IMG/VR virus record: IMGVR_UViG_3300008266_008316
Span: 1 to 64,000 of that record
DNA length: 64,000 nucleotides
DNA from: a virus
Reading direction: 5' to 3' (one strand)
Below are positions 1 through 14,766 of this stretch, one piece after another (the first letter of the stretch is position 1; every line of letters starts with the position of its first letter). A program made the position numbers and the translations under genes. The notes beneath the pieces were generated by a model that had not been told where the DNA came from, searched no databases, and worked only from the letters and a program-made list of their open reading frames with translations.

Positions 1-2
1 CA

Positions 3-110
3 CCAGTAACGCCTTCGCCAGTGACGCCTTCACCAGTAACACCTTCGCCAGTGACGCCTTCGCCGGAAACACCTTCGCCAGTGACGCCTTCGCCTGAAAT
101 ACAATGTCCT
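3..110 (+). repeat. 15-bp tandem repeats coding TPSPV/E (block 1)
   Basis: About seven near-identical 15-bp units of the form ACR-CCT-TCR-CCR-GTR run to about position 97. A second block of about five units lies at 207-272. Differences are mostly synonymous third positions, so the array can expand or contract in frame. Confidence 0.8.
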
Positions 111-398
111 ACAATACCATGTGTTGATGCTCAAGATTGTTCACCGTGTGCATATTGCTGTGCTGGGCAATGTCAAAATACACCATGCCCACCCGTAGCA
201 CCAACGCCTTCACCGGTAACACCTTCACCGGTAACACCTTCACCAGAAACACCTTCACCAACACCATCACCAGCAACATGTACTTTTGGAGCTACTCAAT
301 GTGTGGGCCAAGATTTGTACACTTGTAATGGTACAGAATATGTATTATCGTGTACAAATTATATTGATTGCGGCGGATCGAACAGTTCGTGTGAGTAA
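3..398 (+). CDS. Pro/Thr/Ser-repeat, Cys-rich surface protein (5' end outside window)
   Basis: The frame is open to the left edge, so only the C-terminal 131 codons are seen and the start lies outside the window. Two blocks of a TPSPV/TPSPE pentapeptide (about 8 and 5 copies) flank a Cys-rich knot with nine cysteines in about 30 residues. A second Cys-rich tail (five Cys) closes the protein with a stop at 396-398. Pentapeptide Pro/Thr/Ser repeats suggest a rigid extended stalk, and clustered cysteines suggest small disulphide modules, as in surface adhesins or fibres. An assignment as tail-fibre, head-fibre or exported protein is inference. The Pro, Thr and Ser content makes it the obvious candidate substrate for the hydroxylase and glycosyltransferase genes that follow. 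Confidence 0.6.
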   Translation, partial: PVTPSPVTPSPVTPSPVTPSPETPSPVTPSPEIQCPTIPCVDAQDCSPCAYCCAGQCQNTPCPPVAPTPSPVTPSPVTPSPETPSPTPSPATCTFGATQCVGQDLYTCNGTEYVLSCTNYIDCGGSNSSCE

Positions 399-492
399 AA
401 TCAATTGGTGAGGTAAAAACGTAAATATGTATTATAGTACAGTACGAATATACTAAATTGTAATACTGAAAAATAATTAAGAGGAAATGGTT

Positions 493-1464
493 ATGAAAAC
501 AATATTGGTTACGGGAGCCGGTGGGTTTATTGCCGGACATATAGTAAAGAAATTAGCAGAAATATATACAGTACGAGCAATTGATAAAAAGCCGTTTGAT
601 AAATGGTATCAAATTACCGAGTCAGCAGAAAACATCGTCGGAGACTTAACGGATTACGATGTTGCTCTAAACGCCACGCAAGGTATTGATGAAGTCTATC
701 ATTTAGCGTGTGATATGGGTGGAATGGGATTTATCGAACACAATAAGACATTGTGTATGTTATCCATTATTCCAGACACCAATACATTAAAAGCAGCACA
801 CCTAAACGGAGCAAAGAAGTTTCTCTTCGCATCGACCGCTTGTGTCTATCCTGTGTATAAACAAAACACGACAGAACCAGAACCTTTAATTGAAGGTACA
901 GAATACCCAGCCGATCCCGAAGATGGGTATGGTTGGGAAAAGCTGTTTATGGAACGCATGTGTCGTCATTTCACCGAAGATTTTGGAATTGAAACCCGTA
1001 TTGTCCGATACCACAATGTCTACGGTCCAGTAGGTACGTGGCAAGGTGGACGAGAAAAAGCACCGGCCGCGCTCTGTAGAAAAGTCGCACATGCTTTACA
1101 CACTAACTCTGATACGATTGAAGTGTGGGGTGATGGTGAGCAAACACGGTCGTTTTTGTATATTGATGATGCAGTCGAAGGAACAATTCGTGTAATGGAT
1201 AGTCCACATCAATCGGCATTTAATATTGGATCAGACCGAATGGTGTCCGTTAATGAATTAATTACGATTATTGAAAATGCAGCTGGTGTCAAACTCCAAC
1301 GTAAACATATTGAAGGACCGTTGGGAGTACGTGGAAGAAACTCACATAATGACAAAGTAAAGGCATTGTTAAATTGGGAACCTGCTATTACATTAGAAGA
1401 AGGAATGACTCGTACATTTAACTGGATACGGGAACAATATGGATTATATCATAGTACCAACTAG
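493..1464 (+). CDS. GDP-mannose 3,5-epimerase-like SDR enzyme
   Basis: Extended short-chain dehydrogenase of 324 aa. The NAD-binding GAGGFIAG is at residues 8-14. A DMGGMGF block, the STACVYP catalytic-Cys segment (Cys about 117), the YGWEK Tyr/Lys pair (about 145-149) and the GTWQGGREKAPAA substrate loop all match the plant GDP-mannose 3,5-epimerase family. That enzyme makes GDP-L-galactose and GDP-L-gulose from GDP-mannose, so the product is probably a nucleotide-sugar donor for the transferases downstream. AGAGGA at 480-485 favours the ATG at 493 over the one at 487. The gene overlaps the next by 26 nt. Another GDP-sugar epimerase activity is possible; the family call is strong. Confidence 0.85.
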   Translation: MKTILVTGAGGFIAGHIVKKLAEIYTVRAIDKKPFDKWYQITESAENIVGDLTDYDVALNATQGIDEVYHLACDMGGMGFIEHNKTLCMLSIIPDTNTLKAAHLNGAKKFLFASTACVYPVYKQNTTEPEPLIEGTEYPADPEDGYGWEKLFMERMCRHFTEDFGIETRIVRYHNVYGPVGTWQGGREKAPAALCRKVAHALHTNSDTIEVWGDGEQTRSFLYIDDAVEGTIRVMDSPHQSAFNIGSDRMVSVNELITIIENAAGVKLQRKHIEGPLGVRGRNSHNDKVKALLNWEPAITLEEGMTRTFNWIREQYGLYHSTN

Positions 1465-4210
1465 TAATAGTGAGTATCAATCGTGGCAGTGTCGTTTATT
1501 AAACTGGTCACGGAAGAAAGTAAAGCAATCAGGTAAACTTGTGTTATTACGATGTGCAGATCCGATGGGTAGAAATAGACCGTTGGATGAATACACAGAC
1601 ACGGATGTAGTAGTAATAGATTTACCAGATTATGCTACAGAATGGGAAAATCTAGAATCAGAATCAAAACGTGGTGAAAAATATTGGTGGGGAGCTATAC
1701 CAAATAAATTCATGTCGATAAAATGGTTATGCGATAACTCTTCTTTTAAAGACGAAGATAATTTATTATTTCTAGACCCAGATATGATATTTTTACATCC
1801 AGTAGAATTTGTTCCTAAATATAACGAAATTATAGCACAAAGATTTATTCACTACGCACCGTTACAGAATTGGAAAATTGAAAATGATAGAGACGGGTTT
1901 GGTGTGATGTATCCATTTTGTATTAAGTTTGGTACATTAAAAAAAATAATAGACGATTATATTACCAGTTCAGAGCAAATTAAACGTGAAACGAAACGAT
2001 GGGAATCTGAAATGTGGGGATTGGATTACGCAGTTAAAAAGAACAATTTAAAAATTCAATACGTAGAGGACTTTGGATTCTGTACGGCATGGAAAGAAAA
2101 TGACAGTAATGAAGTCAGTCTTATCGCACATTTCCCGAATGAAATATTTGATGCGAATAATAATTCTTTATTTTTCAAACAAGATTACACACACAATCAG
2201 AATATGCAAATAGACGTAAATAGAGCAAGAAACAAATTAGATGAACTTTTGTTATCTAATATTGCACAAGAAAGAACGGATTATCTGTACCATTTAAAAT
2301 GGAATTTTTCTAATATATTTAACAATTACACTGGTAAAACCGGATATATTATTTTAAAACCGTGGCCGGGTGGATTTAACAACATACGAATGTCATTAGA
2401 ACTGGCGGTTTGTATAGCATATTTAACGAATAAGACATTAGTACTACCTCCAAAGTATAATATGTATTTGCTAAAAGATACGTTTGGGCTAGAAGATTTT
2501 TTTGATATGTCTGATTTAGGAATAAAAACAATGTCTTTTTTTGATTTCTGTAGACTGAAAAATATTACTCCTACGTTCGAAGCAGTTGCAGAAATTAGTA
2601 AAACCATAACAGAACCAGAATTTCACGTTTTAAATTTTACAGAATCACTACCAGACGAATCATTTAAACATGGACGTTCTGTAACTGATATGATTGAACT
2701 ACTTGGTCACAATGAGTGTTTATTTTTTGATGGTAAATTGTTAGGAAATTTTTATCAAACCATATATACGACATTTGACGTAGAACTTAAAAAATTAATA
2801 GCACGGCACGTTCATTACACTCCTAAATTAATGGAATTGGGTTGGCGGGCAATAGAAGTGTTGGGAGACAGAAAATACTATGCAATCCACATAAGAAGAA
2901 ATGATTTTCAGTATAAGCATTTGTTCATTACAGCGGAGCAAATCTATGATAATATCAAAGATATAATACCAGATGGTTCCACATTGTATATTGCAACAGA
3001 CCATACCGATAAATCATTTTTTGACAAACTTGCCCAACACTATCAGTTACACTATTACGAAGATATTGCACATTTAGCAAAACTAGAAAATGTGCACTAT
3101 AATTTTATTCCGATAATAGAACAACTCATATGTACAAGATCTATAAAGTTTATAGGTAACGATTATTCCACTCTTTCCTCGTATATATACAGACTTCGAG
3201 GATATATGAAAGATATAGAAGATAAAAACTTTTATATCAATACTAGTACGTTTAATCAAGATGAGCAATGTGATTCTACTGAAACAAAAAGATTCATAGG
3301 TAATTGGGCACGAGAATTTAAAGACGCCTGGGATTTTAAACCTAAAAAAATATTTGTTTCTGTAGCTAGCTATTGCGACCGCCAGTTATTAACTACATTA
3401 AGAAATTTATATGAAACGGCACAAGACTCATCACGAATTATGGTAGGTGTCCATCTTCAAGATAACGAAGAATATCATAAAGAATTACTTAATGAAAATT
3501 TTCCAAACATGAAAATATTATTTACTCCAGATGAAGATTCTCTGGGAGTTGTTTGGGCGCGTGAAAGAATAAAGCAAGAATTAATAACTGATGAGGATTT
3601 CTTTTTGCAGATTGACGCACACAGTAGATTTAAACAAAATTGGGATGGTATACTAATAAATCAATATAGAAGTATGCCAAACAAAAAAGTGGTATTCTCT
3701 ACATATCCAAATGGATTCGAACTTACCGATACGGAAAAAAACTTTTTATCTATAAAAACTAATGCCCCATTAGTTATTAGTGGACATATGGATGTTGAAA
3801 ATGTTAATCCAATAGATAACAGATTAGTTACAAAAAATTTAGTAGCAATGGATAAGTACGAAATATTCGACAACAAATGGATAGGTGCAGGATTTATATT
3901 TGCACCAATCGAATGGACTGGAGATATACAAGTACCTATGCAAATAAAATCTAAAGGTGAAGAAGAAGCACAAACGTTCTTATCTTATTTAAAAGGATGG
4001 GATATAAAATTACCCGCTGAGGCGACAGTATGGCATAATTATAATATACATGACTTGGACGGCACCGTATACAGAAAAACAAATCATAATGAAATAACAG
4101 ACAAGTCTGTTGAAATTATAAATGATATACTTTTTAATACTTCCAATTCATATTCTCGTTCATTAGAAGAATTGGAGGATTACTTGTCAATTAAATTTAG
4201 ACGGATCTAA
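1439..4210 (+). CDS. Three-domain glycosyltransferase (HPAT/SGT-like, O-fucosyltransferase-like, GT60-like)
   Basis: A 923-aa polyprotein-like enzyme. Residues about 1-240 resemble plant hydroxyproline O-arabinosyl-/serine O-galactosyltransferases: a YQSWQ start, NKFMSIKWL, and LFLDPDMIFLHPV with a DPD metal motif. Residues about 300-600 resemble the GDP-fucose protein O-fucosyltransferase fold, with GGFNNIRMSLE and the donor-binding HIRRNDF. Residues about 635-900 resemble the GT60/Skp1 GlcNAc-transferase family: VSVASYCDRQL near the start, then WARERIK, FFLQIDAHSRF and GAGFIFAP. The gene is AT-rich and starts inside the end of the epimerase gene. Three transferase activities on one chain suggest sequential assembly of a short O-glycan on one acceptor. 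The N-terminal assignment is the least certain of the three. Confidence 0.7.
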   Translation: MDYIIVPTSNSEYQSWQCRLLNWSRKKVKQSGKLVLLRCADPMGRNRPLDEYTDTDVVVIDLPDYATEWENLESESKRGEKYWWGAIPNKFMSIKWLCDNSSFKDEDNLLFLDPDMIFLHPVEFVPKYNEIIAQRFIHYAPLQNWKIENDRDGFGVMYPFCIKFGTLKKIIDDYITSSEQIKRETKRWESEMWGLDYAVKKNNLKIQYVEDFGFCTAWKENDSNEVSLIAHFPNEIFDANNNSLFFKQDYTHNQNMQIDVNRARNKLDELLLSNIAQERTDYLYHLKWNFSNIFNNYTGKTGYIILKPWPGGFNNIRMSLELAVCIAYLTNKTLVLPPKYNMYLLKDTFGLEDFFDMSDLGIKTMSFFDFCRLKNITPTFEAVAEISKTITEPEFHVLNFTESLPDESFKHGRSVTDMIELLGHNECLFFDGKLLGNFYQTIYTTFDVELKKLIARHVHYTPKLMELGWRAIEVLGDRKYYAIHIRRNDFQYKHLFITAEQIYDNIKDIIPDGSTLYIATDHTDKSFFDKLAQHYQLHYYEDIAHLAKLENVHYNFIPIIEQLICTRSIKFIGNDYSTLSSYIYRLRGYMKDIEDKNFYINTSTFNQDEQCDSTETKRFIGNWAREFKDAWDFKPKKIFVSVASYCDRQLLTTLRNLYETAQDSSRIMVGVHLQDNEEYHKELLNENFPNMKILFTPDEDSLGVVWARERIKQELITDEDFFLQIDAHSRFKQNWDGILINQYRSMPNKKVVFSTYPNGFELTDTEKNFLSIKTNAPLVISGHMDVENVNPIDNRLVTKNLVAMDKYEIFDNKWIGAGFIFAPIEWTGDIQVPMQIKSKGEEEAQTFLSYLKGWDIKLPAEATVWHNYNIHDLDGTVYRKTNHNEITDKSVEIINDILFNTSNSYSRSLEELEDYLSIKFRRI

Positions 4211-4212
4211 AA

Positions 4213-5136
4213 ATGGAAAAAATCTTTATAGCAATTGCAAGTTTTCGTGATTATGAACTACCACATACCATACTAGACCTAATTAGTAAAGCCGAAAATC
4301 CTCAAAGATTAGTATTTTCTGTAGTGCACCAATTTGATGAAGAGCCAGAGACGAATGAAAACTGCATCAATCATTTACTCGGCAAGTATCCAATACATTT
4401 AGAATTGCACCATTGGACAGAATCAAGAGGTGGTTGTTGGGCAAGAAATATAGCACAGAAATATTATGCAAATGAAAGATATGCATTACAAATAGATTCA
4501 CACACTCGGGTTATAAAACATTGGGACTCCGTGTTAATACGAAATATAGAAAATTTAAGAAACATATCACCAAAACCTATAATTTCATATTTATCTCCAT
4601 CATACTCTAGAAATGACGAATATGGTATAGACTATTTGTTTAGTAATATATTTGATATGGATAAAATACAAATACCTAAAATAAAAAATATAACTAGTCA
4701 ATACTGGATTGAATACGGTGGATATGAAAATGAACAGCGTACTGGATATAAAAATGTAAGAGTCCCCGTACTATATGGTGGGTTTATATTTTCAGACGGC
4801 CAATGGGTAGTTGAAGTGGAACAAGATCCATTACATTATTATACTGGTGAAGAATTTGCTTTAGCCGTAAGATCGTATACAAAAGGATATGATATATACA
4901 CGCCCGATAGAATAGTATCGTGGCATAGAGCACATAACGAACCAAACAAAAAACACTTTACCGTACTACCACCGGAATTTGGACAGTATAGACATAAAGT
5001 TGCGATGGAACGACTTCGAAGGTTATTTGAAGGTGGTGATCTGGGTAAATACGGTCTGGGTACACATCGAACTCTAGATGAGTACGAGCAATTTTCAGGA
5101 ATAGATTTCAAAAATAAACAAATTAAGACTCTGTAA
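4213..5136 (+). CDS. GT60-like (Skp1 GlcNAc-transferase family) glycosyltransferase
   Basis: A 307-aa single-domain relative of the C-terminal third of the preceding gene. It has IFIAIASFRDYEL at the start, GGCWARNIAQ, ALQIDSHTR with the D-x-H acidic motif, LYGGFIFSDG, and a late HY..GEEFALAVRSYTKGYDI block. In eukaryotes this family adds GlcNAc to hydroxyproline (Skp1) or to mucin-type Thr. The gene begins 2 nt after the previous stop and is followed by a carbamoyltransferase, so it belongs to the same operon. The real sugar and acceptor are unknown. Confidence 0.7.
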   Translation: MEKIFIAIASFRDYELPHTILDLISKAENPQRLVFSVVHQFDEEPETNENCINHLLGKYPIHLELHHWTESRGGCWARNIAQKYYANERYALQIDSHTRVIKHWDSVLIRNIENLRNISPKPIISYLSPSYSRNDEYGIDYLFSNIFDMDKIQIPKIKNITSQYWIEYGGYENEQRTGYKNVRVPVLYGGFIFSDGQWVVEVEQDPLHYYTGEEFALAVRSYTKGYDIYTPDRIVSWHRAHNEPNKKHFTVLPPEFGQYRHKVAMERLRRLFEGGDLGKYGLGTHRTLDEYEQFSGIDFKNKQIKTL

Positions 5137-5148
5137 CATAAAACGGTT

Positions 5149-6708
5149 ATGTTTAATTTATCAATATACACAGGACACAATGCGTCATTTACGATAAGTC
5201 GAGATGATGAAATTCTAGAAGTTGTGGAATTGGAAAGATGGCTAAACGTTAAAAATATAAGTTTAACGTGGTATCTACCTACCACTCATAATCCTATACA
5301 TGCTGTAAAAGAAATACTTCTATACTTCAAAATAAAATATGGTGCAGACAAATACCAAAATCTAATATGTAACCCTACAGATTTGGAAGTACTCACGGGT
5401 GGATATTGGTCTGCACACGGAAGTGTTTTAGATATTTTTAACGCAAAAAATTTAATAGAGATGGGTCACCAAGAAGGACACGCGTATAATGCATTTTATC
5501 AAACTAATTTAAAAGAAGCAACAATTATTAGTTTTGATGGTGGTGGTAATGATGGGTGTTTTAATTTTTATAAAGCAACTAGACAGAATGGAGTCACATT
5601 ATATAGAACGGAACCTGATTATAATATCGGAGAAAAATATGCACAAATTGGATTTTATTGTAGTTCATTGAGCAAACAAGATAGATTTCAAGGATATCTG
5701 GTACATTCGGGTAAGTTGATGGGATTGTCAGCATACGGTAAAATTTTACACAATAACATAAATAATTTTTTAGAATACTACAAAGGACATCATTCTACTT
5801 ACGAGGACAAGTATAACAATTATAAAAAATTAGGTTATCCAGATGAGTTAACTGGCCAGTTAGAAGTGGATGTAGTCAGAACTTCTCAATATGCGTTTGA
5901 GCAATTGTTTGAAAAGTTATCATACAAAGATATCATAGGTAGTGATGACAAATTATGTTTAACTGGTGGATGTGCTTTAAATGTACTGAATAACACACAA
6001 GTAAATAAATTAACAAAGACGCATGTAACGCCAAATCCAGACGATAGAGGATTGAGTTTAGGATTTATGTTAGGGTTTTTAAAGCCATCGGATGCATTTG
6101 ATTCCACTTATATCGGACCTGAAGTTTGGGATAGACATTTATTACATGAGTACGTAAACAAATATAATGCAACCGAAGTAGATTTCACAAAATTAGCAGA
6201 AGATTTAATTTCTGGAAAAATTATTGGAATTGTTCGTGGTCGTTCTGAACACGGGGCTAGGGCATTGGGAAACAGAAGTATTCTTTGCATGCCAACTGTA
6301 GGTATGAAAGATATACTAAATGCAAAAGTCAAACATAGAGAATATTATCGTCCGTTTGCACCCGTAACTAGATTGGAAGATGCAAATACTTATTTTGATT
6401 GGGAAGGTGAAGCACGTTGGATGACATTTAGCCCAAGAGTAAAAACGGAATACCGATCAATTTTACCATCTGTCACACATATCGATAACACGGCTAGATT
6501 GCAAACAGTAACAGAAATGCAAAATTCTTTTCTGTATCACCTATTAGGTGAAGTAAAACGACTTTCAGGAGTCGGTGTATTAATAAATACATCCTTCAAT
6601 ATCGCAGGAAAACCAATTCTGAATACATACAGAGATGCTGTCTGGATGCTAGAAAATGTGGAAATGGATGGGTTGATTTTGGAAAATTATTATATAAAAA
6701 AGGATTAA
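5149..6708 (+). CDS. NodU/TobZ-family sugar O-carbamoyltransferase (copy 1)
   Basis: A 519-aa protein with both halves of the family. The N-terminal ASKHA-like part has GHNASFTI, GHQEGHAYNAFY and SFDGGGNDG. The C-terminal YrdC-like carbamoyl-adenylate part has GRSEHGARALGNRSILC, REYYRPFAPV and LINTSFNIAGKPI. These enzymes transfer carbamoyl from carbamoyl phosphate, via carbamoyl-AMP, to a sugar hydroxyl, as in Nod factors and tobramycin. In this operon the likely substrate is the glycan built by the neighbouring transferases. It is paralogous to the gene at 7485-9041. Confidence 0.85.
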   Translation: MFNLSIYTGHNASFTISRDDEILEVVELERWLNVKNISLTWYLPTTHNPIHAVKEILLYFKIKYGADKYQNLICNPTDLEVLTGGYWSAHGSVLDIFNAKNLIEMGHQEGHAYNAFYQTNLKEATIISFDGGGNDGCFNFYKATRQNGVTLYRTEPDYNIGEKYAQIGFYCSSLSKQDRFQGYLVHSGKLMGLSAYGKILHNNINNFLEYYKGHHSTYEDKYNNYKKLGYPDELTGQLEVDVVRTSQYAFEQLFEKLSYKDIIGSDDKLCLTGGCALNVLNNTQVNKLTKTHVTPNPDDRGLSLGFMLGFLKPSDAFDSTYIGPEVWDRHLLHEYVNKYNATEVDFTKLAEDLISGKIIGIVRGRSEHGARALGNRSILCMPTVGMKDILNAKVKHREYYRPFAPVTRLEDANTYFDWEGEARWMTFSPRVKTEYRSILPSVTHIDNTARLQTVTEMQNSFLYHLLGEVKRLSGVGVLINTSFNIAGKPILNTYRDAVWMLENVEMDGLILENYYIKKD

Positions 6709-6709
6709 T

Positions 6710-7492
6710 ATGACTAAAATTATAGTACTAAACCAATCAACGTGGCATTTTGAATATAATGCAATAGATGCGTTAGCAAAAAGTACATGGGCAAGAGTAA
6801 AACACCCAGACGTAACAGTTATTCATTATTACGGAGGTTATGATTTAGAAGATAAACCGTATTCACATTTAAGTGGAACGCCCGCCAAGGGTTCTGCGAT
6901 TATGTATGATAACCACGGTAATAATATTCTTGTGTGTGGGGTACAAGATGTAGTAAGCAATCCTCTTACAGATCCACGTAATCAAAAACTTATCATAGCA
7001 TATGAGTGGTGTCTTAATAATTTAGAATTTGATTATATAGTTCGAATTTGTAATACGACTTACCTTGATATTAAAAAGATGCACAAATTTCTAGATTCAC
7101 TGGAAAGAAAAGATAAACAATATGATGGTGCACGAAATATGTACAACAATGAGTATTATTTTTGCGGAGGAAGTTTTAATTATCTATCAAAAGATTGTGT
7201 ACAACAATTAGTAAACAATAAAGAAGAATATTTATCTTTACCGTATCCGTTATCTATGGAAGATCTTGGTGTGGGAGTAATACTATTTAATAAATTAAAT
7301 TATGCCGTCTGGGACGAAGTACATCAAGATGTAAAAACATCCGCTACAAGTTTAGGCGATAACGGTGGCCCGTTAGTAGATTACGTCGATGACATAATAG
7401 CAAATGAAAAGTATTTTGCGTATAGATTTAGAATCAGTAGTACGGAAGAGTACATACAATTTCACAATAAGGTTTTACGAAAATATGTTTAA
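6710..7492 (+). CDS. GT31/fringe-like glycosyltransferase, metal motif altered
   Basis: A 260-aa protein. The order of motifs resembles beta-1,3-galactosyl/fringe-type GT-A enzymes: FDYIVRI....YLDIKKM in place of the usual DDDtYv segment, then FCGGSFNYLS (usual GGAGYVLS), then MEDLGVGVIL (usual EDVyvG). The canonical DxD aspartates are missing at the expected place (ICNTT), so it may be inactive, metal-independent or use other residues. It starts 1 nt after the first carbamoyltransferase and overlaps the start of the second by 8 nt. The family call is tentative. Confidence 0.5.
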   Translation: MTKIIVLNQSTWHFEYNAIDALAKSTWARVKHPDVTVIHYYGGYDLEDKPYSHLSGTPAKGSAIMYDNHGNNILVCGVQDVVSNPLTDPRNQKLIIAYEWCLNNLEFDYIVRICNTTYLDIKKMHKFLDSLERKDKQYDGARNMYNNEYYFCGGSFNYLSKDCVQQLVNNKEEYLSLPYPLSMEDLGVGVILFNKLNYAVWDEVHQDVKTSATSLGDNGGPLVDYVDDIIANEKYFAYRFRISSTEEYIQFHNKVLRKYV

Positions 7493-9041
7493 TATAGGAA
7501 TGTTTGGTTCTCATAATGCAACAATAGCTATATCAAAAGATGACAAACTTTTAGAAGTAGTGGAAGTAGAAAGATTTACTTCAATAAAAAATTGCGCATT
7601 ATGGTTTTACTATAACATAAGAGAGCCATATAATATAGCAGTGATTCACGAAATAAAAAACTACTTTAATCAAAAATATGGAGTAACGGAATATGAAAGC
7701 GTAATATATAATTCCGTGCACCAAGAATACTATAAAATATTTCCCGCTAAAAAATACACATGGTTACCACACCACACAGCTCACGCATACTCTGGATTAT
7801 ACCAATCCCCATATAGTAATGCGTTAATAGTATCAGCTGATGGTGGTTCAGATGAAGGATTTTTCAATGTGTTTATAGGTGATAAGCGCGCGGGTATTAC
7901 AAAAATATATTCTGGTAAAAGAGATTTAGCTGTTCCATATGGATTGGTTGCACATTATATTGAAGATATACGAAAGGAAGAACCGTTTTGGGGAAACTTG
8001 GTGTACGCCGGAAAAATTATGGGGTTTGCAAACTACGGAAACGCCACGGAAGAATTCGTCAATAAATTACATACTATATATAATAGCGGGGATGATGGGA
8101 AAATACCGGAAACGGTGACTACAATAAGGAAGGTTCTTGACATTCCAGAGGAATTTAGATTCACTGGCCAAGACGCTAAAGATTTAGCTGCTTCAAATCA
8201 ATTTGTCTTTGAGCAACTTTTTGAAGAAGAGATAACGCCATTTTTAAAGGAATACCCTTCATTACCCTTAATTTTAGTTGGTGGGTGTGGGCTTAATATA
8301 TTAAATAATACCAAACTTGCTAGAACTAGAAACGTATTTGTTCCACCTAATCCAAATGATTGTGGGTTGGCGGTTGGATTATTAGCATCTACTATCAAAC
8401 CAACAGAACCAATTGATTGTACATATGCTGGGCCCGTAGTATGGGATAGACATGAATTAATAAGAATTGCACACGAACGATCGGCACAAGTACTTGACAT
8501 CGCTAAATTAGCAGACTATATTATATCTGGTAAAATTGTAGGTGTGGTACGAGATAGATGTGAACATGGTCCAAGAGCACTAGGAAATAGAAGTATATTG
8601 TGTAATCCTGCTATTACTGGAATAAAAGATATATTGAATGCTAAAGTAAAAGGTAGAGAATATTATCGTCCCTTCGCTCCCGTGGTCCGTCTAGAAGATG
8701 TTAACAAATATTTTGAATGGAATACTGAAAGCCGTTGGATGAGTTTTTGTCCAAGAGTAAAAGATGAATATAAAAATAAACTAGAAGCAATAGTGCACGT
8801 GGATGGTACAGCGAGAGTACAAACTGTAACTAAAAAACAAAATGAATTTTTATATAATTTATTAACAGAAATGCATAATAAAACTGGAATAGGTGTATTA
8901 TTAAATACTTCGTTCAATGTGGCAGGAAAACCAATTTTGAATACGTATAAAGAAGCACTCACAGTTCTAGATAGTAAAGAGATGGACGCCGTTATATTGG
9001 AAGATTATATTATACAAAAAAACAGAGGATCACAGTTATGA
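7485..9041 (+). CDS. NodU/TobZ-family sugar O-carbamoyltransferase (copy 2)
   Basis: A 518-aa protein from the ATG at 7485, which overlaps the upstream stop by 8 nt. An upstream in-frame ATG at 7404 would add 27 residues without family resemblance and lies deep in the preceding gene. It carries GSHNATIAIS, LPHHTAHAYSGLYQ, SADGGSDEG, RCEHGPRALGNRSILC and REYYRPFAPV, so all catalytic blocks are present. It aligns along its length with copy 1 but is clearly diverged, which suggests an old duplication and perhaps a different acceptor hydroxyl. Its stop overlaps the next start by 4 nt. Confidence 0.85.
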   Translation: MFNIGMFGSHNATIAISKDDKLLEVVEVERFTSIKNCALWFYYNIREPYNIAVIHEIKNYFNQKYGVTEYESVIYNSVHQEYYKIFPAKKYTWLPHHTAHAYSGLYQSPYSNALIVSADGGSDEGFFNVFIGDKRAGITKIYSGKRDLAVPYGLVAHYIEDIRKEEPFWGNLVYAGKIMGFANYGNATEEFVNKLHTIYNSGDDGKIPETVTTIRKVLDIPEEFRFTGQDAKDLAASNQFVFEQLFEEEITPFLKEYPSLPLILVGGCGLNILNNTKLARTRNVFVPPNPNDCGLAVGLLASTIKPTEPIDCTYAGPVVWDRHELIRIAHERSAQVLDIAKLADYIISGKIVGVVRDRCEHGPRALGNRSILCNPAITGIKDILNAKVKGREYYRPFAPVVRLEDVNKYFEWNTESRWMSFCPRVKDEYKNKLEAIVHVDGTARVQTVTKKQNEFLYNLLTEMHNKTGIGVLLNTSFNVAGKPILNTYKEALTVLDSKEMDAVILEDYIIQKNRGSQL

Positions 9042-9568
9042 ACAACCAATCAGAATTTTTTGCTCGACATGGGTATGCATACATTAAAGACGTACTGACA
9101 CACCAGCAGTGCGACGACTTTGCTCAGTTGATGTATGACATGAAAGCTACAGATCGTTTAGTTTATGAAGGTGGTGACCAAAAGTTTTATGATAATTCGT
9201 ATGGTGGAAACCATCCAGAGTTTGAGGCCGCATTGCGATCATTAACAGACAGATTGCAAGACGAGTTGGGAGTTAAAATGACTCCCGCTAATTCGTTTGG
9301 ACGCATTTATTATAATGGTGGAACTTTACACAAACACGTTGATCGTCAAGGTCTTGATTACACTATGTCTATTACGCTATTTAATAGTTTAGATAAGGAA
9401 TGGCCATTGTGGTGTATTGATAAGACAAATAATCAAGTTCCTTTGAATATTGGTCGAGGTGATGGTGGTATGATGTTAGGAACAACAATGACACATTGGC
9501 GTGATGATTTAATTTGCGAACCACACCAGCATGTTGTTCAACTATTCATGCATTGGAGTTTTGCATGA
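9038..9568 (+). CDS. 2OG-Fe(II) oxygenase, prolyl-4-hydroxylase-like
   Basis: A 176-aa single-domain protein. The iron-binding HxD is at His100/Asp102 in LHKHVDRQG. A distal His follows in EPHQHVVQLF (163 or 165). The spacing and the double-stranded beta-helix pattern fit the P4H/PKHD-type dioxygenases common in phages. Such enzymes hydroxylate Pro or other residues using 2-oxoglutarate and O2. It is translationally coupled to both neighbours (ATGA overlaps). Given the Pro-rich repeat protein and Hyp-glycosyltransferase-like genes upstream, prolyl hydroxylation is an attractive inference. Sugar or lipid hydroxylation cannot be excluded. Confidence 0.7.
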   Translation: MNNQSEFFARHGYAYIKDVLTHQQCDDFAQLMYDMKATDRLVYEGGDQKFYDNSYGGNHPEFEAALRSLTDRLQDELGVKMTPANSFGRIYYNGGTLHKHVDRQGLDYTMSITLFNSLDKEWPLWCIDKTNNQVPLNIGRGDGGMMLGTTMTHWRDDLICEPHQHVVQLFMHWSFA

Positions 9569-10185
9569 ACGAAAAACTTAAACACGAATTTGAGATTATA
9601 ATACACGCTGTACATGCTATGAATCCAACGGCAAATGGGTGGGGATGCATAGAAACTCGAAGTGGTGGTGGTAGTACATTAGAATCTACAAAACCTTTAA
9701 GAAATGCATTGCCAAAATTATTTGATACATTTAATATCAAATCAATTCTAGACATACCGTGTGGTGACTTTCATTGGATGAAAGAAGTCAATTTGACGGG
9801 AATCGAATACGTCGGAGCGGACATTGCCGAAGTATTCGTCAATGACAACAGACTAAATTATCCACAGCATGAATTTCTACATTTAGATATTACAGAAGAT
9901 CCTTTACCTAAAAAGGATTTAGTTATAGTGCGAGATTGTTTTATACATCTTTCTTATGAGAATATAAAAAAGTCCCTAGAGAACATAAAAAATAGTGGAA
10001 GTACATACTTGCTAACCAGTAGTAGAAGGAATCTTATAGAAAATAAAGATATTTTAGACTCTGATTTTAGACAAATTAATATGGAAATAAATCCATTTTA
10101 TTTAAACCCTATATATTGTATTGATGAAGATACGTCTGAACCATATCGATCTATGATATTAATCAAAATAGATGATTTAAAATAA
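9565..10185 (+). CDS. Class I SAM-dependent methyltransferase
   Basis: A 206-aa protein starting at the ATG coupled to the oxygenase stop (ATGA at 9565). Motif I reads ILDIPCGDFHWM, followed by YVGADI and DLVIVRDCFIHL, which is a Rossmann methyltransferase core. The acceptor is unknown. Being last in the sugar cluster, it may methylate a glycan hydroxyl or a protein side chain. Confidence 0.7.
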   Translation: MNEKLKHEFEIIIHAVHAMNPTANGWGCIETRSGGGSTLESTKPLRNALPKLFDTFNIKSILDIPCGDFHWMKEVNLTGIEYVGADIAEVFVNDNRLNYPQHEFLHLDITEDPLPKKDLVIVRDCFIHLSYENIKKSLENIKNSGSTYLLTSSRRNLIENKDILDSDFRQINMEINPFYLNPIYCIDEDTSEPYRSMILIKIDDLK

Positions 10186-10206
10186 ACTTAAAATAAAGAG
10201 GTTACT

Positions 10207-11277
10207 ATGAAAATGATAGCATATCCCGCATCCGACAGACCGTTTAGACTACAGCCTGCTGGATCTAAACGTCCTTGGATGGACGATGCAGTAAATAAAA
10301 ACCCGTACAGATGTTTACCATTATCTATGGCTAATTCATTTGGGTGGGAAATATTGTCAGAGGCACACTTCACAGCAGAGTGGGATGGAAATAATGCGCC
10401 TTCTGGTGTAAAAATAAAACACCACGATGGTTATGGAACTCCATCGTCTCACTTTGGAGAAGGTACCTTAACTTGGCATGCTGGATGGTTATTCCAAATG
10501 GAATATCCATACGGACTATACGTTACTGGTGCACCGAACACACCTGTGCCAAACGTTATACCATTGTCTGGGGTAGTAGAAGCGCACTGGTTAAGATATT
10601 CCTTTACTCTAAATTGGAGATTTACACAACCTGGATCTTTTGAAGTAAAAATAGGAGATCCTATTGCGCTTATTTTCCCTATCGACTTGACGGTGTTTGA
10701 TAATACGGAAGCAGAAATTCGTTCGCTCCACGATCCAGAATTCAAAGAATTTCACGATGATTACTGGAATTGGAATGTTTCGAGATTAAAATATATGTCC
10801 GAACAACGAGCGGGTCACCATTCAGCAGATGTATGGCAGAAACACTACTTTAGAGGAGTATATCCGGCTGAAGTAAAGGATGGATCGCTTATGGGTGATC
10901 CAACTGCTTCAAGTAAAAAGTGTCCATTTCATACTAACGCGGAAGGTAAACAACAGTCCACGCATAGAACCAAACCAAATGTACGGGAATTTGTTGATAA
11001 ACGAATTGGTAAGTTTGAAACGCCGCCTATATACTGGGAACTGACAAAAAAGATTCAAGATCAACGTAATCTAGAATCTTCTCAAAACGCACAATCGACC
11101 AACCAGCAAGTTGCTGTAAATTCCAAAGAAATAGAAATGGAAAATAAAGTGAAGGAGTTAGAGTTGAAGTTGCGTATCGCTGAGACGCAATTAAAATTAC
11201 AAAGTACTCAACTTCCAAAAGCTAATAAGAGTAAGACAGCAACAAAGAAAAAGAAGATTTCAGTTGAGGTAAAATAA
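10207..11277 (+). CDS. DUF6065-like protein with C-terminal coiled coil
   Basis: A 356-aa protein starting MKMIAYPASDRPFRL after an AGAGG site. The first about 250 residues (PLSMANSFGWEIL, a GTLTWHAGWLF strand, NVIPLSGVVEAHWL) resemble the domain of unknown function DUF6065 found in phages and bacteria, often near oxygenase and sugar genes. A KKCPFH.. segment near residue 240 ends that domain. The last about 70 residues are a charged coiled coil with a Lys-rich tail. The function is not known. It is the last gene before the helicase block. Confidence 0.5.
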   Translation: MKMIAYPASDRPFRLQPAGSKRPWMDDAVNKNPYRCLPLSMANSFGWEILSEAHFTAEWDGNNAPSGVKIKHHDGYGTPSSHFGEGTLTWHAGWLFQMEYPYGLYVTGAPNTPVPNVIPLSGVVEAHWLRYSFTLNWRFTQPGSFEVKIGDPIALIFPIDLTVFDNTEAEIRSLHDPEFKEFHDDYWNWNVSRLKYMSEQRAGHHSADVWQKHYFRGVYPAEVKDGSLMGDPTASSKKCPFHTNAEGKQQSTHRTKPNVREFVDKRIGKFETPPIYWELTKKIQDQRNLESSQNAQSTNQQVAVNSKEIEMENKVKELELKLRIAETQLKLQSTQLPKANKSKTATKKKKISVEVK

Positions 11278-11508
11278 ATGAAAGAAGTAACGATGGACGT
11301 TCCTATCGCATTAGCGCAATTGATATTAAATAATAACGAAGCGTTAAAAAAATATCAATCACAATTAATGCAACAGATTAAACTTGCTAATGAACAAATG
11401 ATGCAAATATTAAAATTAGATCCAGAGGAGGGTTGGCAATTGGACATGGAACGAATGGTATATGTTCGTGCAACAACTCCAGAAGAAATACTAGAGGTTG
11501 AGGCTTAA
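11278..11508 (+). CDS. Small helical phage protein, unknown function
   Basis: A 76-aa protein whose ATG directly follows the previous stop and whose own stop overlaps the next ATG by one base (taATG). It is mostly a Gln/Leu-rich amphipathic helix, followed by a DPEEGWQLDMERMVYV segment. That arrangement is typical of conserved T4-like phage orphans, but I do not recognise the family. Confidence 0.6.
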   Translation: MKEVTMDVPIALAQLILNNNEALKKYQSQLMQQIKLANEQMMQILKLDPEEGWQLDMERMVYVRATTPEEILEVEA

Positions 11509-13391
11509 TGCATCCTTCGTTGGATGAAGTGGTCTTTACGTGGGGAAAATACTCGGGGCATACGTTGGGTAGCGTTCGGCGTACTGCCCCGCAGTATTTA
11601 CAATGGATAACCACAACTAAAACATTACCAGCAAAATGGATTGAAGCAGCACAACGAGCTTTGTTAGGTGATGATGTATCGGACTTACAACTACCCCGTG
11701 TCAAGCAATCCGATAAACCCAAAGAAGAACGAGAACAACAGACAGGTCCAATTGAAGTCCATTTGAAGGACACCAAGACGGCCTATATTGTCATGCCGTA
11801 CAACAAACTCCTATTGGAACAATTCAAGTATGAGATTGACGGACGGAAATGGAATGGTGATGAAAAGCATTGGGAGTTTCCCGCAGTACATCTTCCAAAA
11901 GTCAAGAAGTTGTTTCCAAATTCCGTTTTATCATCGTCGGCTGAAAAATTATTAGGTAAGTTACAAGAACGTCGGGAAGATTTAGATGAAATTCGTCAAA
12001 AGGAAGATACGGATTTTGAAATTAAGGGATTGAAACTCAACCTCTATCCATACCAAAAAGTTGGTGTACAATTCGTCGATAGAGCTGGTGGTCGGTGTCT
12101 CATTGCGGATGCGCCGGGATTGGGTAAGACGGTGCAAGCTATTGCGTACGCACAACTTCATAATCTCAAAACGTTAATTGTTTGTCCTTTGTCCGTAGTC
12201 GTGAATTGGCAACGTGAAATTAAAAAGTTCACGGGCAAAGAGAGTACTGTTTGGGATAGTAAGGTGTACGATGGAAACCTTAAACACCAGTTTCATATTA
12301 CCCATTACGATGCAGTTGCGAAAAATAATCATTGGCTTCGTGACCAAGGATTTGACTTATTGGTGTGTGATGAAGCAACCTATCTAAAGAATCGTCAGAC
12401 TATTCGAGCAAAGAGCATTCTTGGGTCGTGGAAAGAACGCCGTAAGTATCCCGGCATCAAAACCAAGTATACGATTTTCTTGACGGGAACGCCGGTCATG
12501 TCTCGTCCGATTGAAGCATTTAGTTTATTGAACTTCTTGGATAAGGAACGCTTCAATAACTTCTTCCATTTCACGCAAAGATATGGTGGATGGAAAGGTC
12601 AAGCACCAATGAATCTTCAAGACCTCCACGACCGCACAAAAGATTTGGTAATTCGACGAAAGAAAGATCAAGTACTAACGGAATTACCGGCTAAACAACG
12701 GAATGATTTATATGTGGAATTGACGAAGGACGAAAGAAAAGAATACAACGAATTATTGAAAGAATTATTTGGTAAATGGAAAATGGATGGGAAACCTTCT
12801 ATTAAACACATGCCAAAACTACAAAGCTTCCTAATTGAAAAGAAGTTACCTCGGTTGGTAGAAATGATTGATGAATTTCTGGATAACGACAAACCCATCC
12901 TCATCTTCAGTAATTATATTGCTCCATTGAAGTTCTTGCTGGAACATTATGGACATCACGCAGCACTATTGACAGGTGAAATGAATAAAAATGAACGCCA
13001 AGAAACTATTGACAAATTAGTTAGCGGGCAGGCTAAGATTGGATTATTCAGCCTGTTAGCAGCCGGTATGGGTATCGACGGATTGCAACACAAGATTGAT
13101 ACGGTTGTATTTCTGAATATGGATTGGGTTCCCGCAAATCACGAACAGGCAGAGGACAGAACCCATCGTATTGGCCAAAAGGCACAAGTACAGGTCTATT
13201 ATATGGTCTGTGATGGTACGATGGACGAGTATATGCGTGATATTCTAAAAGAAAAACAATCGGTAGCCGATATGATTGTAGATGGTGCATTGGTTACGCC
13301 GGATAAACAAAAGTCTTATTTTAAGGAGTTTGTCAGAAGATTAAATAGCGCATATAATGAACGCTTTGACATAGAAAACGATTCTGACTGA
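11508..13391 (+). CDS. SNF2/HARP-type DNA helicase (UvsW/SMARCAL1-like)
   Basis: A 627-aa protein. The N-terminal about 45 residues (GKYSGHTLGSV..PQYLQWI) match the small zinc-free module found at the C-terminus of exonuclease X-like proteins. Next comes a HARP-like substrate domain (KYEIDGRKWNGDEKHWEFP). The SNF2 motor follows: Walker A APGLGKT (about residue 200), DEAT box (about 286), LTGTPVMSRP, and C-terminal motifs LLTGEMNKNER and RTHRIGQ. SMARCAL1/HARP proteins anneal ssDNA and remodel forks, and T4 UvsW does a similar job, so a role in fork regression and recombination is likely. It sits apart from the other replication genes. Confidence 0.85.
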   Translation: MHPSLDEVVFTWGKYSGHTLGSVRRTAPQYLQWITTTKTLPAKWIEAAQRALLGDDVSDLQLPRVKQSDKPKEEREQQTGPIEVHLKDTKTAYIVMPYNKLLLEQFKYEIDGRKWNGDEKHWEFPAVHLPKVKKLFPNSVLSSSAEKLLGKLQERREDLDEIRQKEDTDFEIKGLKLNLYPYQKVGVQFVDRAGGRCLIADAPGLGKTVQAIAYAQLHNLKTLIVCPLSVVVNWQREIKKFTGKESTVWDSKVYDGNLKHQFHITHYDAVAKNNHWLRDQGFDLLVCDEATYLKNRQTIRAKSILGSWKERRKYPGIKTKYTIFLTGTPVMSRPIEAFSLLNFLDKERFNNFFHFTQRYGGWKGQAPMNLQDLHDRTKDLVIRRKKDQVLTELPAKQRNDLYVELTKDERKEYNELLKELFGKWKMDGKPSIKHMPKLQSFLIEKKLPRLVEMIDEFLDNDKPILIFSNYIAPLKFLLEHYGHHAALLTGEMNKNERQETIDKLVSGQAKIGLFSLLAAGMGIDGLQHKIDTVVFLNMDWVPANHEQAEDRTHRIGQKAQVQVYYMVCDGTMDEYMRDILKEKQSVADMIVDGALVTPDKQKSYFKEFVRRLNSAYNERFDIENDSD

Positions 13392-13407
13392 TATTTATTA
13401 ATATCAG
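13388..13407. repeat. 8-bp inverted repeat after the helicase gene
   Basis: CTGATATT (13388-13395) and AATATCAG (13400-13407) form a perfect 8-bp stem with a TATT loop overlapping the helicase stop. No clean U tract follows. It may be a weak 3' end or part of a late promoter region for the tail operon, because the sequence holds a TATTTAT element also seen upstream of other genes. Confidence 0.4.
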
Positions 13408-13440
13408 CAGTAAATATTTTATATTAATAAGGAGTTACAT

Positions 13441-14220
13441 ATGGAGCAAAAAACAGTTACAGAAAATCTATTTCCAACTGAAGTAATTGATTTACCTTCA
13501 AAGGGAGTCTTTTATGCAGAAGGAAGTCCGTTACGTTCTGGACAAATCGAAATTAAGTATATGACCGCAAAGGAAGAAGATATCCTTACGTCAACTAACT
13601 TAATTCAGAAAGGTGTTGTGTTGGATAAGTTGATGGATAGTTTAATCGTCACAAAGGGTGTAAAATCATCGGATCTATTAATTGGTGATTTAAATGCAGT
13701 GATGGTTGCTACCAGAATTCTTGGATATGGTAAAGATTATTCTGTAGGAATGACTTGTCCGAAGTGTGGCAAGACTATTGAAGAAACGGTTGATTTGACT
13801 ACATTAAAAACAGAAAACGAACCAGACGGAAATAGTCCGACTGAAATTAAAATAGTTCTTCCGGTGTCTAAAGCAGAAGTAACATTAAAGTTGTTGACCC
13901 GTGGAGATGAATTGGCTATTGAGAAGGAAACGAAGGCTCTTAAGAAGGCAAATTCAGAAATAGAATCCGATACGACCGCAAGACTTCGAGCAATGATTTC
14001 GTCAGTAAACGGTGAAACAAACAAAGGAAAGATTTGGACATTTGTGGAAAACTTGTTAGTTAAGGATACAAGATTCTTACGTGAACAGTACAGACAGCTT
14101 ATTCCAGATGTTGACTTCAATGTAAATGTTGATTGTGATTCATGTGGTTCTGACAACTTATCGGTGAGGTTGCCTATCGGCATCAACTTCTTTTGGCCTG
14201 ACGCCGGAGTACAAGGCTGA
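13441..14220 (+). CDS. 26: T4 gp26-like baseplate hub assembly / tail chaperone protein
   Basis: A 259-aa protein with a strong AAGGAG site. It begins with the family signature FPTEVIDLPSKGVFYAEGSPL, then IEIKYMTAKEEDIL. A zinc ribbon follows (CPKC about 103-106 and CDSCG about 237-241). The end, PIGINFFWPDAGVQG, is typical of T4-type gp26. In T4 the protein is needed for baseplate hub assembly and is not in the virion. It sits just upstream of the tape measure gene, where other phages encode frameshifting tail chaperones. The +1 frame downstream of the FF codons stays open into the next small ORF (see findings). Confidence 0.75.
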   Translation: MEQKTVTENLFPTEVIDLPSKGVFYAEGSPLRSGQIEIKYMTAKEEDILTSTNLIQKGVVLDKLMDSLIVTKGVKSSDLLIGDLNAVMVATRILGYGKDYSVGMTCPKCGKTIEETVDLTTLKTENEPDGNSPTEIKIVLPVSKAEVTLKLLTRGDELAIEKETKALKKANSEIESDTTARLRAMISSVNGETNKGKIWTFVENLLVKDTRFLREQYRQLIPDVDFNVNVDCDSCGSDNLSVRLPIGINFFWPDAGVQG

Positions 14221-14233
14221 AATCCATAAGTCG

Positions 14234-14383
14234 ATGCTGATAACAGCACACTATTCAAAAGGGGCGCTTAGCGTCATAGAGTTATATCAAATGCCTGTTT
14301 ATCTTCGAAATTTCTATATACGTGAGTTTGGTAAGTTGAAACAAGAAGAAGCAGACAGAATAGAAAAGGCATCTAAACGGTAA
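14234..14383 (+). CDS. 49-aa small tail assembly protein, possibly a +1 frameshift extension of gp26
   Basis: The ATG at 14234 opens 49 codons, MLITAHYSKGALSVIEL.. to ..EKASKR, with a YQMPVYLRNFYIREF core. No Shine-Dalgarno is seen in the preceding 15 nt. The same frame is open upstream to 14168 and reads GLTPEYKAEIHKS before the Met. A +1 slip on TTC-TTT-TGG (14188-14196) would therefore fuse it to the gp26-like protein. Either independent initiation or programmed frameshifting is possible; the coding character looks real. Confidence 0.6.
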   Translation: MLITAHYSKGALSVIELYQMPVYLRNFYIREFGKLKQEEADRIEKASKR

Positions 14384-14388
14384 TCCAT

Positions 14389-14763
14389 ATGATATTACTC
14401 AAAGAACTTTTAAGTGATTATGATAGAGGGTATAAAGGATGGGCACGAGCGGGTTCTCCAATGATAACGGTAGTGGACAACTTCCGAGTATTCGCTGGAT
14501 CGGCAACTCGTTCTGCCACTCCTTTGTATACTATTAAAGGTAATAAATTATTTAAAGGTTTAGCAACAGCTGGAGCACCATTAGCTACATTGGTCGGGGA
14601 TTTAATGTTTCCGGGGTGGCATGTTAATGGCGCACCAATGGCTCGATTAAAAAGAGATATTTCTATAAAAGGTGCAGCAACTATGGGACCAGCAATAGCA
14701 ACTGCACCAAGTGGAAATGTTGCTACGTTGTTTGCGGCAACATATCACGCACTTCGAGGATAA
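14389..14763 (+). CDS. Repeat protein with five about 20-aa units, unknown function
   Basis: A 124-aa protein. After a short helical start it contains five imperfect repeats of about 18-20 residues with the pattern [FY]xGxAxxGAPLxTLxGD (for example FKGLATAGAPLATLVGD and FPGWHVNGAPMARLKRD). This suggests a small beta-solenoid or propeller-like fold. It lies between the gp26-like gene and the tape measure, so a tail assembly or structural role is inferred. I do not recognise the family. Confidence 0.65.
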   Translation: MILLKELLSDYDRGYKGWARAGSPMITVVDNFRVFAGSATRSATPLYTIKGNKLFKGLATAGAPLATLVGDLMFPGWHVNGAPMARLKRDISIKGAATMGPAIATAPSGNVATLFAATYHALRG

Positions 14764-14766
14764 TGA

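What the first reader, a model, noticed from the sequence alone, without database searches (positions are those of the whole stretch)
3..10185. Possible phage-encoded eukaryote-like Pro/Ser O-glycosylation system for its own Pro-rich surface protein
A TPSPV-repeat protein is followed by a donor-making GDP-mannose 3,5-epimerase-like enzyme, a fused transferase with Hyp-O-arabinosyl/Ser-O-galactosyl-like, protein O-fucosyl-like and GT60 (Skp1 GlcNAc) domains, a second GT60 enzyme, a GT31-like protein, two carbamoyltransferases, a prolyl-hydroxylase-like oxygenase and a methyltransferase. In Dictyostelium, Skp1 is prolyl-hydroxylated and then extended by GT60 and GT31-type enzymes; plant extensins use Hyp and Ser transferases. 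Here all classes are clustered in a phage operon beside a Pro/Thr/Ser-rich candidate acceptor. The motif matches are direct; the pathway is inference.
Basis: partly seen in the sequence, partly recalled or inferred. Interest (0 to 1): 0.85.

Follow-up and report, generated by a model that had tools for sequence, protein, structure and literature searches.

The report
Phage kit for glycosylating mucin-like fibres
A large freshwater bacteriophage carries a gene cluster that most likely decorates its own long, threonine-, proline- and serine-rich fibre proteins with sugars, using enzyme families otherwise known from mucin and plant cell-wall protein glycosylation in eukaryotes; related phages add a prolyl hydroxylase to the same kit.

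Summary
The window opens a 93.9-kb fragment of a ~221-kb myovirus. The GT31 call is not supported. The TPSPV protein is the tail of a 678-aa fibre-like protein, one of five Thr/Pro/Ser-rich repeat proteins found in this phage.

Two tests support protein glycosylation. In 28 of 61 deduplicated viral GT60 loci, GT60 directly follows a Pro/Thr/Ser-rich ORF, against 30 of 708 other ORFs in those loci. In 24 of 27 HPAT-fusion loci, a prolyl-4-hydroxylase-like gene abuts the fusion gene; in this phage's lineage the epimerase sits there instead, and no canonical P4H was found.

Best reading: a virion O-glycosylation cassette, mucin-type here (GlcNAc-Thr-like) and hydroxyproline-linked in relatives. 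Closest precedents are T. cruzi GT60 and jumbo phage XacN1, which has a GT60 homologue and reported glycoproteins. Chemistry is inferred; nothing biochemical was tested. New variant of phage-encoded virion glycosylation.

The parts
3..398 (+). C-terminal fragment of a Thr/Pro/Ser-rich (TPSPV) fibre-like protein, candidate acceptor; 678 aa in L007:6924-8960
   Evidence: ORF; window 1-14926 is 99.99% identical to L007; full-length ORF with collagen-like GPKGTPG and TPSIT/TPSPV repeats
487..1464 (+). GDP-mannose 3,5-epimerase-like SDR enzyme, candidate GDP-L-galactose maker
   Evidence: segments STACVYP, DGYGWEK, GREKAPAA, GVRGRNS present (that they hold the active site is recalled)
1439..2248 (+). 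HPAT-like GT-A domain of the 923-aa fusion (DPDM motif at 1775-1786)
   Evidence: PF23452 in 22 of 23 aligned members, window included; AlphaFold model pLDDT 80.5 matches GT-A enzymes; motif invariant
2345..3208 (+). O-FucT domain of the fusion, HIRRND motif at 2888-2905
   Evidence: PF10250 99 bits, residues 303-590, also 5 of 5 relatives; H484, R486, R487, D489 invariant in 10 fusions
3338..4210 (+). GT60 (GlcNAc-transferase) region of the fusion, QIDAHSRF at 3608-3631
   Evidence: PF11397 109 bits; D726 and H728 invariant in 10 fusions
4213..5136 (+). stand-alone GT60 glycosyltransferase
   Evidence: PF11397 169 bits; QIDSH present
5149..6708 (+). Nol-type O-carbamoyltransferase 1
   Evidence: PF16861, PF02543; phrog_1601
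6710..7492 (+). conserved protein of unknown family, perhaps a divergent Fringe-like GT
   Evidence: no Pfam/PHROG match; weak Fringe in 1 of 4 homologues; homologues in L036, L035, L300
7485..9041 (+). Nol-type O-carbamoyltransferase 2
   Evidence: PF16861, PF02543; start inferred
9038..9568 (+). 2OG-Fe(II) oxygenase, divergent, prolyl-hydroxylase-like predicted fold
   Evidence: H100, D102, H153, R155 invariant in 10 rows; model pLDDT 93.5; P. putida P4H Z 17.9, rmsd 2.9, 167 aligned
9565..10185 (+). methyltransferase
   Evidence: phrog_3382 E 2e-44; start inferred
10207..11277 (+). DUF6065 protein, conserved neighbour of the oxygenase
   Evidence: PF19541 217 bits; next to the oxygenase also in L008 and L036

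Best explanation
The cluster is a phage-encoded O-glycosylation cassette for the phage's own mucin-like (Thr/Pro/Ser-repeat) fibre proteins. Sugar donors are made or tailored by the phage (GDP-mannose 3,5-epimerase-like enzyme here; GMD-like and GDP-fucose-synthase-like genes elsewhere). GT60 enzymes start or extend glycans on Thr (GlcNAc-like sugar), the O-FucT domain adds a fucose- or galactose-like sugar from a GDP donor, the HPAT domain glycosylates (hydroxy)proline or a neighbouring residue, and carbamoyltransferases and a methyltransferase cap the glycans. In related phages a tandem, P4H-like gene abuts the HPAT fusion and would make the hydroxyproline acceptor; in this phage's lineage that slot holds the epimerase, and only a divergent 2OG oxygenase was found. 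Shown: domains, motifs, gene order, genomic association. Inferred: acceptor, sugars, linkages, order of steps, and that the repeat proteins are in the virion.
For: Domain families and motifs. Repeat proteins: five ORFs among 265 called with over 50% Pro+Thr+Ser in a 60-aa window, up to 1690 aa; the two largest lie 9-14 kb downstream of tail sheath and tube genes and are followed, after one 143-aa ORF, by two further GT60 genes. Association: GT60 directly after a Pro/Thr/Ser-rich ORF in 28 of 61 viral loci against 30 of 708 other ORFs in the same loci; such ORFs in 40 of 61 GT60 loci against 6 of 42 sheath and 6 of 46 terminase loci. P4H-like gene directly upstream of the HPAT fusion in 24 of 27 loci; PF13640 in 5 of 5 tested; the one searched matches solved P4Hs, best E 1.3e-21. 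O-FucT + GT60 fusion kept in 5 of 5 relatives. Donor genes: GMD-like and GDP-fucose-synthase-like best matches. Known GT60: alpha-GlcNAc on Thr of mucins. XacN1 has a GT60 homologue and its authors report at least two glycoproteins by proteomics.
Against: No biochemistry. No proteomic evidence that the repeat proteins are virion proteins; PHROGs gives no match for the 678-aa and only unknown-function families for the 1690-aa repeat protein. No PF13640 match in this phage. In full-length scans HPAT did not reach E 0.01 in any of 5 relatives' fusions; it did only when the domain was scanned alone (22 of 23 at E up to 0.1). HPAT loci are richer in repeat ORFs than controls overall (13 of 29), but 'within 2 kb' does not differ from sheath loci (5 of 29 against 4 of 42, p 0.47). 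21 of 61 GT60 viral loci show no same-strand repeat ORF; flanks are short in some. GMD and GDP-fucose-synthase matches lie below NCBIfam's curated cut-offs. In bacterial genomes the GT60 link is weak (4 of 75 against 9 of 826, p 0.018).
Confidence: 0.68

Rival explanations
1. The cluster modifies host surface polysaccharide (LPS, O-antigen or capsule), for superinfection exclusion or receptor change, and sits beside fibre genes only because fibre regions gather cargo genes.
For: The phage has ordinary O-antigen-type genes elsewhere (RmlB over cut-off; RmlA- and RfbH-like best matches under cut-off); Nol-type carbamoyltransferases act on small glycans in known systems (recalled).
Against: Known GT60 members act on polypeptides, as do HPAT and P4H (recalled); GT60 follows repeat ORFs far more often than other genes of the same loci (28 of 61 against 30 of 708); sheath- and terminase-centred controls are poor in repeat ORFs.
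Confidence: 0.17
2. The cluster hypermodifies phage DNA bases (as TET-linked glycosyltransferases and carbamoyltransferases do in other phages, recalled).
For: Weak sub-cut-off TAGT match in the fusion (21.8 bits, cut-off 27.5) and in 1 of 5 relatives; oxygenase, GTs and carbamoyltransferases together fit such pathways (recalled).
Against: No Tet/JBP match in two large records of this phage (though the family rang in no control genome either); TAGT matches only part of the GT60 region, which scores far higher as GT60; linkage is to repeat proteins; relatives carry a P4H-like gene.
Confidence: 0.06
3. Mucin-type only (a narrower form of the best explanation, so the odds overlap): the repeat proteins are glycosylated on Thr/Ser, and proline is neither hydroxylated nor used as a linkage in this phage; the HPAT domain acts on Ser/Thr or on sugars.
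For: No PF13640 match here; GT60 can act on Thr; the HPAT model resembles several GT-A families about equally.
Against: A P4H-like gene abuts the HPAT fusion in 24 of 27 related loci, and this phage keeps an oxygenase with a P4H/PHD-like predicted fold.
Confidence: 0.4

Closest known systems
GT60 polypeptide alpha-GlcNAc transferases (T. cruzi TcOGNT, Dictyostelium Gnt2; Skp1 GnT1 recalled)
   Same: Same Pfam family with a DxH motif kept; the acceptor in T. cruzi is a Thr/Pro-rich mucin (assayed on KPPTTTTTTTTKPP)
   Different: Phage-borne, presumably cytoplasmic, one copy fused to HPAT and O-FucT domains; activity untested
Plant/algal extensin-type pathway: prolyl 4-hydroxylase + HPAT (GT95)
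   Same: Related phage loci pair a P4H-like gene with an HPAT-family GT, several beside Pro-rich repeats
   Different: No secretory pathway; arabinose donor not identified; no canonical P4H found in this phage
Xanthomonas phage XacN1
   Same: GT60 homologue ORF334 followed by a carbamoyl transferase gene, a Pro/Thr/Ser-rich ORF350 about 12 kb away; at least two glycoproteins reported
   Different: HPAT/O-FucT/P4H not looked for in its genome; which proteins carry glycans is not named in the passages read
Virus-encoded virion glycosylation (PBCV-1; mycobacteriophages)
   Same: Glycans on the virus's own structural proteins, with virus-encoded glycosyltransferases in PBCV-1 (passage); mycobacteriophage capsid and tail tube glycans (passage in another paper)
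   Different: No mucin-like repeats or P4H-HPAT pair in the passages read; GT families not compared here

Membership tests
GT60 / PF11397 | Score over the curated Pfam cut-off | tested here: met
   109 and 169 bits, cut-off 21; two further copies in the phage
GT60 / PF11397 | DxH/DxD donor-site motif kept (motif recalled) | tested here: met
   QIDAH / QIDSH; D and H invariant in 10 fusions
GT60 / PF11397 | Transfer of GlcNAc to Thr or hydroxyproline of a polypeptide | not testable with these tools
   needs an enzyme assay
HPAT (GT95) / PF23452 | Score over the curated Pfam cut-off | tested here: met
   27.6 bits whole protein, 31.5 domain alone, cut-off 23.9; 22 of 23 aligned members match at E up to 0.1, best 2e-13; 0 of 5 relatives at E up to 0.01 when scanned full length
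HPAT (GT95) / PF23452 | Structure specific to HPAT | tested here: inconclusive
   GT-A fold; best Z 15.6, rmsd 3.4, 212 aligned with a GT6 enzyme; glycogenin and LgtC at Z 14.8; no HPAT entry listed
HPAT (GT95) / PF23452 | Arabinosylation of hydroxyproline | not testable with these tools
   needs an assay
Protein O-fucosyltransferase / PF10250 | Family score over cut-off and HxRR motif (motif recalled) | tested here: met
   99 bits, cut-off 31.5; H484, R486, R487 invariant in 10 fusions
Prolyl 4-hydroxylase (in this phage) | PF13640 match | tested here: not met
   no match in G003 and G001 at E up to 0.001; the control rang in 2 of 14 genomes
Prolyl 4-hydroxylase (in this phage) | 2OG oxygenase fold with His-x-Asp...His | tested here: met
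   triad invariant in 10 rows; Z 17.9 to P. putida P4H, tied with non-prolyl oxygenases such as SnoN 17.5
Prolyl 4-hydroxylase (in related loci) | PF13640 match and similarity to solved P4Hs | tested here: met
   PF13640 in 5 of 5 scanned; best E 1.3e-21 for the one searched in the PDB; the rest of the 24 by similarity to that one
GDP-mannose 3,5-epimerase | Overall similarity and active-site segments | tested here: met
   E 5e-91 to 2c59; segments found; NCBIfam matches all below cut-off, none of them a GDP-mannose 3,5-epimerase model
GT31 | Family score / DxD | tested here: inconclusive
   Fringe E 0.049 in 1 of 4; chondroitin synthase 3 E 0.16; DxD not seen by eye
TET-linked DNA hypermodification | Tet/JBP oxygenase in the same phage | tested here: inconclusive
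   no match, but the control rang nowhere

The most novel reading that the evidence does not exclude
Phages have a hydroxyproline- and threonine-linked protein glycosylation pathway of their own (P4H + HPAT + O-FucT + GT60 + carbamoyl caps) that turns giant Thr/Pro/Ser-repeat fibres into mucin- or extensin-like bottlebrushes on the virion. It would be a bacterial-virus counterpart, and perhaps a source or relative, of eukaryotic complex O-glycosylation.
Probability: 0.4. Interest if true: 0.88.

Novelty: new variant of a known kind. Interest (0 to 1): 0.76.

Why it matters
If true, phages build mucin/extensin-like glycoproteins in bacterial cytoplasm with eukaryote-type enzyme families, which would bear on the origin of P4H-, GT60- and HPAT-based glycosylation, explain giant Thr/Pro/Ser repeats in aquatic phages, suggest a function (shielding, adhesion to mucus or particles, receptor decoys), and offer enzymes for making mucin-like proteins in E. 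coli.

Tried and rejected
GT31 for 6710-7492: not upheld. PHROG label 'ferrochelatase' for the oxygenase: rejected on motif and fold. PDB sequence search with the 923-aa fusion: no match up to E 1. PDB sequence searches with the oxygenase alone and as a profile: only chance-level lectin/peptidase rows. Carbamoyltransferase scan as a control set: returned only this phage's own records, so unusable. GT60 in bacterial genomes: the window-based count of 38 of 77 includes 12 opposite-strand cases, probably GC-rich antisense artefacts; ORF adjacency is weak. The sheath control differs by measure: 10 of 42, 0 within 2 kb, by 60-aa windows on either strand; 6 of 42, 4 within 2 kb, by same-strand ORFs. 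No solved HPAT structure was among the rows shown.

Literature: full-text searches on phage + jumbo + glycosyltransferase + TPSIT, virion glycosylation + proline-rich, mucin-like + P4H, hydroxyproline + tail fiber, phage-encoded virion glycosylation, HPAT + bacteriophage, GT60 + phage, O-glycosylation + repeat proteins (no paper) showed no listed paper that is visibly about this cassette; only openly licensed papers are held, and of most lists only the top 10-15 rows were seen. Papers: passages only of PMC12619734, PMC3769586, PMC9472816, PMC5852040 and PMC12774648; all others listing only. The paper PMC10527164 (Freeman et al. 2023) is not held.
Full report
What the window is. The window is bases 1-64000 of a 93,922-base IMG/VR virus record. 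Five near-identical records of the same phage came up; window 1-14926 is 99.85-99.99% identical in them. Two of these, 166.6 kb and 114.5 kb, overlap at both ends, which implies a circular or circularly permuted genome of about 221 kb, a jumbo phage. It has a T4-type tail sheath, tail tube and terminase. The nearest isolate records by terminase and sheath are Flavobacterium phage immuto and Microcystis phage Mel-JY01, at 40-52% identity, so the host is not settled.

The operon. Genes from 487 to 11277 run on one strand with gaps from -89 to +21 bases as called; the large overlaps shrink once likelier starts are used for two of them. The epimerase is closest among solved structures to GDP-mannose 3,5-epimerases, with active-site segments kept (which residues are catalytic is recalled). 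The 923-aa protein joins HPAT-, O-FucT- and GT60-family domains; the DPDM, HxRR and DxH motifs are invariant over 10 aligned fusions. The first-stage domain reading was therefore good, except for GT31.

The acceptor. The 131-aa TPSPV ORF is cut by the contig start. In another record it is 678 aa, with a short head, a collagen-like GPKGTPG stretch and long TPSIT and TPSPV arrays, next to small proteins with SFA-SAS-like motifs (the reading of these as fibre motifs is recalled). Repeat number differs among records. Among 265 called ORFs the phage has five such proteins of 384 to 1690 aa; TPS[IV]T occurs 171 and 168 times in the two largest. These two start about 9 and 14 kb downstream of the sheath gene and are followed, after one 143-aa ORF, by two more GT60 genes.

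Test 1: is GT60 tied to such repeats? A Pro/Thr/Ser-rich stretch (at least 50% Pro+Thr+Ser with at least 15% Pro in 60 aa) lies within 10 kb in 42 of 61, on the same strand in 40 of 42, at a median distance of 558 bases and within 2 kb in 33. By called ORFs, GT60 directly follows such an ORF on its strand in 28 of 61 loci, against 30 of 708 other non-repeat ORFs in the same loci (odds ratio 19, p about 1e-18). Loci collected with unrelated genes of the same phage are poor in such ORFs: 6 of 42 (sheath; best 80 of 498 before deduplication) and 6 of 46 (terminase; best 80 of 213), against 40 of 61 for GT60. Flank lengths differ between loci, loci are not fully independent, and p-values should be read as orders of magnitude.

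Test 2: what goes with the HPAT fusion? Fifty loci (29 after deduplication) encode an HPAT-domain relative. In 24 of the 27 with room upstream, the ORF directly upstream (0-24 bases) is a roughly 415-aa tandem oxygenase, all similar to that of L309. Five of five scanned match PF13640; the L309 protein matches eight solved prolyl-4-hydroxylase sequences at E 3.5e-16 to 1.3e-21, human P4H alpha-2 and PBCV-1 vCPH among them (further organisms, Bacillus and Chlamydomonas, recalled). The three exceptions are this phage, its relative L308 (both with the epimerase in that place) and L348 (an ORF taken as O-FucT-like by eye only). At 70% identity the 24 proteins form 7 clusters, at 50% one, so they are diverse but one family. 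On a midpoint-rooted tree, P4H loci lie on both sides of the epimerase clade, which fits replacement of the P4H by the epimerase, but the root is not fixed and the program warns of a long branch (L348). Thirteen of 29 HPAT loci hold a same-strand repeat ORF, against 6 of 42 and 6 of 46 in controls (p 0.006 and 0.003); within 2 kb the difference from sheath loci is not significant (5 of 29 against 4 of 42) and that from terminase loci is (0 of 46, p 0.007). Several of these repeats are Ala-Pro-Thr-Pro, the kind that plant and algal P4H/HPAT systems use (recalled).

The oxygenase here. It has no Pfam match, but a confident model. Foldseek ranks P. putida P4H and the Dictyostelium prolyl hydroxylase at the top; with VIA-align several non-prolyl oxygenases tie (Z 17.9 to 16), so the fold supports a prolyl-hydroxylase-like enzyme but not its substrate. 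Its relatives occur in loci with repeat proteins in 5 of 9 deduplicated cases.

Other syntenic loci. L036 (the contig of L308) keeps repeat protein - epimerase - HPAT/O-FucT/GT60/GT60 fusion - 6710-homologue - oxygenase - DUF6065; L008 keeps repeat protein - epimerase - O-FucT - other genes - oxygenase - DUF6065, with no GT60 match in the stretch held; L035 (the contig of L347) has P4H - fusion - GT60 - carbamoyltransferase - 6710-homologue - repeat protein. Carbamoyltransferase homologues occur in 11 of 61 GT60 loci.

Donors. Best matches elsewhere in the phage are GDP-mannose 4,6-dehydratase, GDP-L-fucose synthase, RmlA and RfbH (all under NCBIfam cut-offs) and dTDP-glucose 4,6-dehydratase (over cut-off). 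GDP-fucose or GDP-L-galactose for the O-FucT domain is therefore plausible, not shown.

Precedent. T. cruzi GT60 enzymes put alpha-GlcNAc on Thr of mucins and the activity is assayed on KPPTTTTTTTTKPP (PMC3769586, PMC9472816; passages). Among 50,697 phage records, only XacN1 and two Stenotrophomonas phages have a GT60 match at E up to 1e-5 with either of two queries; the XacN1 authors report at least two glycoproteins and suggest that phage glycosyltransferases make them (PMC5852040, passage). XacN1 has a Pro/Thr/Ser-rich ORF350.

Verdict. Guilt by association, not chemistry, but specific and controlled: GT60 and HPAT/P4H cassettes in phages most likely glycosylate the phages' own repeat fibres. 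In this phage a mucin-type scheme is the safer reading; the hydroxyproline scheme is well founded for relatives and open here.

Noticed in passing
L019:7719-18319; L020:7635-9875; L018:18245-18582 (G003 fragments): The phage carries at least 31 tRNA genes and a tmRNA gene with tag GNYNLALAA (L021-L025 and L029 not scanned).
   Followed up: no
window 10207-11277; L008:14094-15644; L036:13287-14210: DUF6065 lies just after the divergent oxygenase (here with a methyltransferase between) in three different phages; its function is unknown and it may belong to the pathway.
   Followed up: partly
window 1-90; L003, L005, L006, L007: The 30-base TPSPV tandem repeat differs in copy number among near-identical records of the same phage, giving repeat proteins of different length.
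   Followed up: partly
L309:8759-10000, L313:8747-10000, L325:8747-9997, L339:8754-10001, L349:8685-9998, L035:1272-2543: The P4H-like gene of relatives looks like a tandem: its C-terminal half is distantly similar to the window's 9038-9568 oxygenase.
   Followed up: partly
L197-L276: GT60 homologues also sit in bacterial assemblies (Morganella, Massilia, Synechococcus, SAR86, Limnobacter and others), of unknown role.
   Followed up: no
L110:881-2911: XacN1 ORF350, annotated hypothetical, has a Pro/Thr/Ser-rich stretch and lies about 12 kb from its GT60 gene.
   Followed up: partly
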